DNA from: an uncultured Methanobrevibacter sp.
GTDB taxonomy: Archaea > Methanobacteriota > Methanobacteria > Methanobacteriales > Methanobacteriaceae
Length of the DNA: 64,000 nt
Reading direction: 5' to 3'
Assembly: GCA_900318035.1 (NCBI GenBank)
Contig: ONJC01000001.1
Coordinates: forward strand, 1 to 64,000
Position 1 is the stretch's first letter. The number at the start of each line of letters is the position of its first letter. Below the pieces are notes generated by a model. The model ran no database searches and was not told the origin of the DNA. It saw only the letters and a list, made by a program, of their open reading frames with translations. Shown here piece after piece: positions 37,504 to 38,916 of the stretch. A program made the position numbers and the translations under genes.

Positions 37504-37921
37504 AATTTTTCCTCCTTATAATAAGTATGTTTAATTTTATTATCCTGACTATATTTAAATTAAATGAGAGAGCATTTGATGAGTAATATTTATACCCTAC
37601 CCTAACTACCTTGTTTAAATATATGGTAAAATAATAATTAAAAAACATGTAGAAAATATAGTATTTATACTATGTTATCTATATATGTGGGTTAAAGTAT
37701 ATAAGGTTTTACTCTATTTGTCATAATTTTTATAGCTATCTTTCATTAAAATTGATTTTAAGATGTAATATTTATTTGATTATGATTTTGGGATTGGAAA
37801 TGCCATATTTTTCAATTTAAATAAAAAGTTGTCTGGCATTAAAAAATTGTTTTCAGAATGTAAAATTGTTCTTTTTTGAAACTGTGCTGTATAAATAATT
37901 TGAATAACATATTGATTATTC
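37504..37921. other. Intergenic region before the JAB-like gene pair
   Basis: This 418-base AT-rich stretch has promoters for both directions, including TATAAATA at 37890-37897. It has a short palindrome (ATAGTA/TACTAT, 37658-37673) and a wider inverted repeat of AATGCCA/TGGCATT near 37799-37843. No gene was found. Confidence 0.5.
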
Positions 37922-38656
37922 ATGGTTTTGAAAAATAGTATTAACAATATTATACACAAACTTCACCTCGACAGTTTTATCAAATCCCATAAGGAATTGT
38001 TAAGAGATAATCGAGGAGGATTTTTGATTCCGGTGAGCGTTAAAGTAACTGATGTTGAATATGGGAGATATAGGCATCTTCCTATTAATTGGTCTATTCC
38101 TCCAATTACAAAAGAAGATTTACCTGAAGAATTTTCCAAAAAAGCGGTTAGGACTGTTGATATGTTTCGAAGAAAAACATTTGATTTGGATTGTGAATGC
38201 CTGATTTTCTTTGACATCAATACTGGCAATATTGTTTCTTGCAATTTTGCTGATGAAGGTGAGTGGAATAAAGTTACTGGAGAGATATATCCAAATTCCT
38301 TGAAAGGAATGAATATTGCTTCTCTTCATAATCATCCAAAACAGTTCTGTTCTCCTCCTTCTGGTAAAAATTTTGAGATGTTAGGTCTTGAATTTGAAGA
38401 ATATGAATTAATTTTATCAAAAAATGAATTATGGATTTTAGAATCAAAAGGAATAATTTTTGATGATGAAATTAAAGAAATTCGAGAAGATGCAGAGGCA
38501 TATTTGGATTCTGTCTTTGAAGAGGCAAATTTGGAATTTGATGAAGGATATTTGGTGTTAGATAATGTTAACCAGATATATGGGGATTTGTTGTTAATTA
38601 ATTTAAATAATAAATTGAATAATATTAAATTAACAAGGAGATTTTTAAATGAATAG
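37922..38656 (+). CDS. JAB/RadC-like protein with altered metal motif
   Basis: A 244-residue protein of unknown function. The central region (about 90-180) looks like a JAB/MPN fold: strands ECLIFFDINTGNIVS, then SLHNHP, then PPSGKN, then YELILSKNELWIL. JAMM enzymes use HxHx7Sx2D; here the last ligand position reads Asn rather than Asp. The N-terminal 80 residues hold PINWSIPP and may be a separate domain. A TATA box lies about 30 bases before the ATG. The stop overlaps the start of the next gene by eight bases, so the pair is coupled. It sits inside a normally continuous housekeeping cluster, suggesting a mobile cassette. Confidence 0.6.
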   Translation: MVLKNSINNIIHKLHLDSFIKSHKELLRDNRGGFLIPVSVKVTDVEYGRYRHLPINWSIPPITKEDLPEEFSKKAVRTVDMFRRKTFDLDCECLIFFDINTGNIVSCNFADEGEWNKVTGEIYPNSLKGMNIASLHNHPKQFCSPPSGKNFEMLGLEFEEYELILSKNELWILESKGIIFDDEIKEIREDAEAYLDSVFEEANLEFDEGYLVLDNVNQIYGDLLLINLNNKLNNIKLTRRFLNE

Positions 38657-38870
38657 TTTTTCATATGATGAAGAACCAGTTAAGGTTACACGTGATTCAG
38701 GTTATAGTAAACTAAAATTAATTTCGCCTGAAAATAGAAAAAAAGCTCGTAAAAATGCACATAATCCGAATATTGTAACTGGAAAGTATAGGCTTAAGGA
38801 TTTATTTGCTAAAAGAGGTATTGTTGTCATCCCTGAAAAAATGACATTATGGTATCAGTTTACAGAATAA
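38649..38870 (+). CDS. Small basic protein, partner of the JAB-like gene
   Basis: A 73-residue protein I do not recognise. The middle is basic (SPENRKKARKNAHNP), followed by GKYRLKDLFAKRGIVVIPE. It begins inside the last codons of the JAB-like gene and has GGAG eight bases upstream, so it is made from the same message. The size, charge and coupling would suit a nucleic-acid-binding or toxin/antitoxin partner, but no family evidence supports this. Confidence 0.6.
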   Translation: MNSFSYDEEPVKVTRDSGYSKLKLISPENRKKARKNAHNPNIVTGKYRLKDLFAKRGIVVIPEKMTLWYQFTE

Positions 38871-38885
38871 TTTAAAAAATAGTGT

Positions 38886-38916
38886 TTAGGAGTTTTTCAC
38901 TCCTAATAATTTTTTT
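38886..38916. terminator. Bidirectional hairpin terminator
   Basis: TTAGGAGT and ACTCCTAA form an eight-base stem with a five-base loop (38886-38906). A T-run follows on the plus strand and another on the minus strand, so it may end both convergent transcripts. The KH gene stop codon lies in one arm. Confidence 0.65.

What the first reader, a model, noticed from the sequence alone, without database searches (positions are those of the whole stretch)
37922..38870. Two-gene cassette with JAB-like protein lacking the usual metal Asp
The first protein shows a JAB/RadC-like core with HNHP and PPSGKN, where the final Asp ligand is Asn. The second, 73 residues and basic, starts within the end of the first. 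The cassette has its own TATA box, a terminator hairpin and sits inside a housekeeping cluster. Small coupled pairs at such insertion points are often defence or toxin-antitoxin modules. This is my best candidate for an undescribed system, together with the GNAT region.
Basis: inference. Interest (0 to 1): 0.6.

Follow-up and report, generated by a model that had tools for sequence, protein, structure and literature searches.

The report
JAB toxin-like gene with antidote-like partner
A gut methane-producing archaeon carries a small two-gene module in which a JAB-fold protein, related to the toxin-like tips of phage capsid proteins, is kept only together with a tiny partner that behaves in evolution like its antidote; if confirmed, this is a little-known kind of archaeal conflict or defence module.

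Summary
ORF1 (37922-38656, 244 aa) and ORF2 (38649-38870, 73 aa) overlap by 8 nt, with a TATA box and a terminator hairpin, between top6B and a KH gene of a Methanobrevibacter genome. ORF1 is JAB-like by fold and motif (E92, HxH 136/138, S147). Its fourth ligand is Asn in 49 of 52 relatives, so N150 is a family trait.

The family is patchy and multi-copy (35 of 67 genus genomes) and almost confined to this genus. Every assessable intact copy (55) has a small partner, separate (48) or fused (7). Twenty sites keep an intact partner without an intact JAB gene. Both genes are under purifying selection but diverge about 8 times more than their neighbours. Between the window and its closest relative, the JAB body and ORF2 were swapped together.

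Distant relatives are C-terminal domains of prophage MuF capsid proteins, which show polymorphic-toxin hallmarks. A 34-bp element beside the TATA box is shared with cassettes elsewhere and with other conflict-type genes.

Most likely this is a chromosomal toxin/antitoxin-like module homologous to MuF-JAB effectors, ORF2 being the neutraliser. Toxicity, target and catalysis are untested.

The parts
37856..37889 (+). 34-bp upstream element (GAATGTAAAATTGTTCTTTTTTGAAACTGTGCTG) abutting the TATA box; related AAA[AGT]TTG[TC] copies begin at 37825, 37843 and 37862
   Evidence: Same element at the same place in 29 of 47 cassettes at unrelated loci; pattern 231 hits against 27 for reversed control in 67 genomes
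37890..37897 (+). TATA box TATAAATA, 25 nt before the ATG
   Evidence: Read from sequence; AT-rich box in the same place in orthologues; function inferred
37922..38656 (+). ORF1, 244 aa JAB-fold protein: E92, H136, H138, S147, N150
38649..38870 (+). ORF2, 73 aa partner, probable antidote, overlapping ORF1 by 8 nt, with AAGGAG ribosome site just upstream
38886..38906 (.). terminator-like hairpin followed by a T-run, shared with the end of the convergent KH gene

Best explanation
The two genes form a chromosomal toxin/antitoxin-like module. ORF1 is a stand-alone JAB-fold effector, homologous to the C-terminal toxin-like domain of MuF capsid proteins in methanogen prophages. ORF2 is its cognate small antidote. 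Proposed working: one transcript starts next to the TATA box under a shared regulatory element. ORF2 is translated from its own ribosome site inside the end of ORF1, so both are made together; ORF2 (two helices and an extended N-terminus) binds the JAB domain and keeps it inactive. When ORF2 is lost, outcompeted or degraded, for example during infection or replacement by a different allele, free ORF1 attacks a cell component through its JAMM-type metal centre, in which Asn replaces the usual Asp. Shown here: fold, homology, obligate pairing, retention asymmetry, co-replacement, co-divergence, shared element. Inferred: toxicity, binding, metal chemistry, target (protein or nucleic acid) and trigger.
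For: Of 56 intact JAB copies 48 have an adjacent small gene, 7 have it fused, 1 is at a contig edge, none lacks it; 20 sites keep an intact partner with JAB absent (10) or broken (10). G015 keeps ORF2 alone at the orthologous site behind the cassette's own upstream element. Partner duplications follow single JAB genes. JAB body and ORF2 were swapped together between G000 and G042: flanks dS 0.13-0.14, ORF1 0.80, ORF2 1.08, breakpoint near codon 36. ORF1 and ORF2 co-diverge (partial r 0.63, p 0.0014). Homology to MuF C-terminal domains: HMM hits, profile-profile 96%, Foldseek to phage minor capsid proteins; these MuF proteins have exchangeable C-termini each followed by a small gene, and the phrog_19593 partner occurs as orphans and arrays. 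The element is shared with other conflict-type genes.
Against: No toxicity, binding or activity data. Gene order is toxin first. Fixed, vertically inherited sites are unlike typical mobile TA or defence loci. Asn at the metal ligand suggests ordinary JAMM hydrolysis is lost; three members lack H138 although their pairs look intact. ORF2 is not detectably homologous to the prophage partner. Fused JAB-partner proteins are unusual for toxin and antidote.
Confidence: 0.62

Rival explanations
1. The pair is a host anti-phage module in which ORF2 is a sensor or guide rather than an antidote: ORF2 positions or regulates ORF1, which acts on phage components or intercepts incoming MuF-JAB effectors (decoy or chromosomal immunity).
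For: Shared element with RhuM, Bro-N, AAA_21/DUF4276, HEPN and other defence-like genes; rapid divergence and allele exchange; fused JAB-partner proteins.
Against: Retention of the partner alone at 20 sites is better explained by an antidote; no PADLOC match; not in defence islands; PADLOC also hits some control genes.
Confidence: 0.2
2. ORF1 is a catalytically dead JAB scaffold (pseudoenzyme) and the pair is a regulatory or binding complex.
For: Asn at the Asp position in 49 of 52, and loss of H138 in three members; the same Asp-to-Asn change makes COPS5 metalloprotease-deficient (PMC4932188).
Against: E92 is kept in all 50 sequences that cover it, H136 and S147 in 52 of 52, H138 in 49 of 52, which is not the drift expected of a dead site; L082, L088 and L089 have Asp.
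Confidence: 0.12
3. An ordinary housekeeping JAMM peptidase with a small ubiquitin-like substrate or cofactor.
For: JAMM fold match to archaeal JAMM1 and an Rpn11 homologue.
Against: Present in about half of genus genomes, multi-copy, often pseudogenised; partners have no Gly-Gly terminus, and the fused partner is modelled as helices rather than a beta-grasp.
Confidence: 0.03

Closest known systems
MuF polymorphic toxins of temperate phages (PF04233 N-terminus; PMC5576092)
   Same: Homologous JAB domain occurs as the C-terminal domain of MuF proteins in methanogen prophages, followed by a small gene; the body and the partner are exchanged together in the cassette as well.
   Different: No MuF or other delivery domain; stand-alone gene at fixed chromosomal sites; Asn instead of Asp; partner not detectably homologous to the prophage partner.
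[quoted passage not shown] PMC3482391)
   Same: JAB-fold effector encoded next to a small putative immunity gene; Pfam Toxin-JAB1 matches two members weakly (E 0.038).
   Different: Below the curated cut-off; those are secreted RHS-type toxins of bacteria; SxxN rather than SxxD.
Type II toxin-antitoxin systems
   Same: Two small, overlapping, probably co-transcribed genes; the second is never missing when the first is intact.
   Different: Toxin-first order; no known TA toxin fold or DNA-binding antitoxin domain; fixed, vertically inherited sites.
RadC / archaeal JAMM1 (JAB superfamily)
   Same: Core fold and HxHP...PS motif.
   Different: Fourth metal ligand Asn, longer C-terminal helical part, obligate small partner.

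Membership tests
JAB/JAMM superfamily | JAB-type fold | tested here: met
   AF2 model pLDDT 84.9; JAMM1 5ld9/5lda E 0.03-0.05, probability 0.75-0.77 (weak); phage minor capsid models E 1e-7 to 1e-6
JAB/JAMM superfamily | Glu, HxH and Ser of the JAMM motif | tested here: met
   E92 50/50 covered, H136 52/52, H138 49/52, S147 52/52
JAB/JAMM superfamily (active metalloenzyme) | Asp as last zinc ligand (SxxD) | tested here: not met
   Asn in the window and in 49 of 52 relatives; Asp in 3
MuF polymorphic toxin | MuF N-terminal domain in the same protein | tested here: not met
   No Pfam hit in ORF1; MuF present only in prophage relatives
MuF polymorphic toxin | C-terminal domain homologous to ORF1 | tested here: met
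   Profile-profile 96% probability over 156 columns; HMM hits
MuF polymorphic toxin | Small gene just downstream of the toxin-like domain | tested here: met
   48 separate and 7 fused partners of 56 intact copies; prophage copies likewise
Type II toxin-antitoxin | Toxic protein neutralised by the partner | not testable with these tools
   Only indirect: partner retained without toxin at 20 sites, never the reverse
Type II toxin-antitoxin | Usual order, antitoxin gene first | tested here: not met
   The JAB gene is first in all copies
Ubiquitin-like processing JAB system | Beta-grasp partner ending in Gly-Gly | tested here: not met
   Partners end in FTE, FTD, FAD and similar; the fused partner is modelled as helices
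Known anti-phage defence systems (PADLOC) | Match to a curated model | tested here: not met
   No hit up to E 10 for either ORF

The most novel reading that the evidence does not exclude
Methanobrevibacter has domesticated phage-type JAB toxin/antidote modules into a host conflict regulon: cassettes at many fixed sites share a promoter-proximal element with other defence-like genes (RhuM, Bro-N, AAA/DUF4276, HEPN, Rpn-like nucleases, an orphan MuF-partner homologue), act through an unusual Asn-type JAMM centre, and are exchanged between lineages as toxin body plus antidote.
Probability: 0.3. Interest if true: 0.82.

Novelty: new variant of a known kind. Interest (0 to 1): 0.62.

Why it matters
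The 2012 survey calls polymorphic toxin systems rare in archaea (PMC3482391), and the 2017 MuF survey describes MuF toxins in phages of Firmicutes and does not mention archaea (PMC5576092). If this reading is right, methanogen prophages carry MuF-JAB and MuF-ART toxin/immunity sets, and their gut hosts carry related stand-alone toxin/antidote modules under a common promoter element. That would give a testable set of conflict genes in a major group of gut methane producers, and a natural test of what JAB domains do in conflicts (protease or nuclease) and whether an Asn-type JAMM centre is active.

Tried and rejected
Direct Pfam, PADLOC, PHROG and NCBIfam scans of both ORFs found nothing significant. 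PDB profile search gave only a chance Rio2 match. Searches of viral contigs, INPHARED phages and PLSDB plasmids for close relatives found none; the phage link came only through the alignment-based genome search. An alignment of all 52 members was too diverse for the collection scan, so a narrower one was used.

Rejected: mobile defence-island gene (fixed syntenic sites); housekeeping JAMM with ubiquitin-like partner (no Gly-Gly, patchy); chance ORFs (dN/dS 0.24 and 0.31); ORF2 as a detectable homologue of phrog_19593 (probability 0.8%).

Foldseek of the fused model gave only weak JAB/MPN hits.

Full report
WHAT IS THERE. ORF1 (37922-38656, 244 aa) and ORF2 (38649-38870, 73 aa) are as described. 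ORF2 starts 8 nt before the end of ORF1 and has its own AAGGAG. A TATA box lies at 37890-37897 and an 8-pair hairpin with a T-run at 38886-38906. The upstream neighbours run the other way (top6B and top6A, named from sequence knowledge) and the downstream neighbour is a convergent KH-domain gene. Record titles of relatives show the genus to be Methanobrevibacter, mostly gut MAGs.

REAL GENES. Over eight orthologous pairs at the same site, dN/dS is 0.24 for ORF1 and 0.31 for ORF2. Their dN (0.26, 0.39) is far above top6B (0.03), top6A (0.06) and KH (0.035). Amino-acid divergence is about 40% and 49% against about 5-6% in the flanks (KH comparisons with L036 in that call are alignment artefacts). 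ORF1 and ORF2 distances correlate (partial r 0.63 given top6B, permutation p 0.0014).

FOLD AND ACTIVE SITE. AlphaFold2 gives a confident model (pLDDT 84.9, pTM 0.79). PDB Foldseek ranks Pyrococcus JAMM1 second and third (E 0.03-0.05, probability 0.75-0.77), which is weak. The viral library gives 25 hits below 1e-3, led by phage minor capsid proteins and uncharacterised phage proteins. In 52 relatives E92 is invariant where covered, H136 and S147 are invariant, H138 is kept in 49, and position 150 is Asn in 49 and Asp in 3. The same Asp-to-Asn change is used as a metalloprotease-deficient mutant of COPS5 (PMC4932188), so ordinary isopeptidase activity is doubtful; the strict conservation of the other residues argues against a dead site.

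DISTRIBUTION. 35 of 67 genus genomes have copies, up to several each, with pseudogenes; outside the genus only weak, diverged matches exist. A scan of 84,980 species genomes found only Methanobrevibacter. Subfamilies sit at their own fixed sites: top6B/KH (this one), a second site in six genomes, a third shared by about a dozen loci, and others. The genome itself has a second copy, G000:C24.

THE PARTNER. Of 56 intact JAB copies, 48 have an adjacent small gene, 7 have it fused to the C-terminus, 1 is at a contig edge and none lacks it. Partner sequences differ so much that several families are not alignable, yet one profile (A7) covers this site's type and the common fused type. In the model of a fused relative the partner forms two confident helices after a disordered linker. 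Searching with A7 shows 20 sites with an intact partner and no intact JAB. At the top6B/KH site, genomes without ORF1 have top6B-KH gaps of about 340-850 nt; one carries a deletion scar joining the start of ORF1 to the end of ORF2 (G040, L179), and G015 keeps an intact ORF2 alone behind the cassette's upstream element. This asymmetry is what a toxin/antidote pair predicts. It was counted only for A7-type partners, and MAG fragmentation adds noise.

ALLELE SWAP. The closest relative, G042, has top6A/top6B at dS 0.13-0.14 but ORF1 at 0.80 and ORF2 at 1.08. Identity is about 99% through the promoter and the first ~36 codons, then falls to 60-80% to the end of ORF2. The JAB body and the partner were thus exchanged together while the N-terminus was kept. 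The downstream breakpoint is not visible because the G042 contig ends there.

PHAGE LINK. Profile search reaches C-terminal domains of 500-575 aa proteins in other Methanobacteriaceae and in this genus. L113, L114 and L115 match PF04233 Phage_Mu_F and PHROG head-morphogenesis families; L112 lies beside terminase and portal genes. Profile-profile comparison of prophage and chromosomal JAB domains gives 96% probability over 156 columns. The prophage domains in A5 have the canonical SxxD and a 76-87 aa downstream gene (phrog_19593 type). Related MuF proteins carry other C-termini (JAB in L187, L188, L198; ART-like by eye in L186, L189, L191-L193; another in L185), each followed by a different small gene. 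phrog_19593 genes occur in 26 of 139 genomes, several as orphans or arrays. These are polymorphic-toxin hallmarks; 'toxin' and 'immunity' remain inferred.

SHARED ELEMENT. A 34-bp element (GCCnGTAAAATTGTTTTnATTTGAAACTGGC, imperfect inverted arms) abuts the TATA box in 29 of 47 cassettes at unrelated loci, usually starting 63-66 nt before the ATG. In about 1 Mb of fetched sequence nearly all strong matches precede a cassette, a remnant or an orphan partner. Across 67 genomes the pattern occurs 231 times against 27 for its reversed control. Other genes behind it include a second JAB family with SxxD and its own partner (L331 fused; L340, L346, L349; also L338), RhuM, Bro-N, an AAA_21 plus DUF4276 pair, a HEPN gene, Rpn-like and RNA-ligase-like proteins (these two by eye), and a homologue of a MuF-ART partner gene (by eye, L315 against L191). 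Few of these 49 proteins have Pfam matches, whereas neighbouring control genes are mostly ordinary metabolism and information processing. PADLOC also hits some controls, so the enrichment is suggestive, not proven. The training set contains orthologues, so the counts are not independent.

CONCLUSION. The best reading is a chromosomal toxin/antidote-like module homologous to MuF-JAB effectors. By genomic criteria it works like a toxin-immunity or toxin-antitoxin pair, but it is not filed as a MuF toxin (no MuF domain) nor as an active JAMM protease (Asp ligand missing). Novelty: a new variant of a known kind.

Noticed in passing
window 37825-37889 and 67 genus genomes: A 34-bp promoter-proximal element is shared by JAB cassettes at many loci and by other conflict-type genes (RhuM, Bro-N, AAA_21/DUF4276, HEPN, Rpn-like, RNA-ligase-like): a possible archaeal conflict regulon.
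   Followed up: partly
L112 5202-6923, L113 5696-7288, L115 7362-8996, L185-L193, L198: Methanogen prophages carry MuF proteins with exchangeable C-terminal domains (JAB, ART-like, other), each followed by a distinct small gene, as in polymorphic toxins.
   Followed up: partly
L200-L214, e.g. L206 and L208: phrog_19593 (about 77 aa partner of MuF-JAB) occurs as orphan genes and tandem arrays in 26 of 139 Methanobacteriaceae genomes, as expected for immunity genes.
   Followed up: partly
L331, L338, L340, L346, L349, L118: A second chromosomal JAB family with canonical SxxD, most with a partner of 89-101 aa just downstream (fused in L331), behind the same element.
   Followed up: partly
G000:C24:591-1394 (L071): The window's own genome holds a second, diverged JAB-partner cassette next to a ribosomal-protein gene.
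   Followed up: partly
L034 7845-8579, L068 7908-8528, L074 6596-7273: Members with an otherwise intact pair in which H138 is replaced by Arg, Gln or Tyr.
   Followed up: no
L052, L060, L061, L076, L080, L081, L085: Many paralogues start with a strongly hydrophobic stretch of 15-20 residues (possible membrane anchor or signal), absent in the window's subfamily.
   Followed up: no
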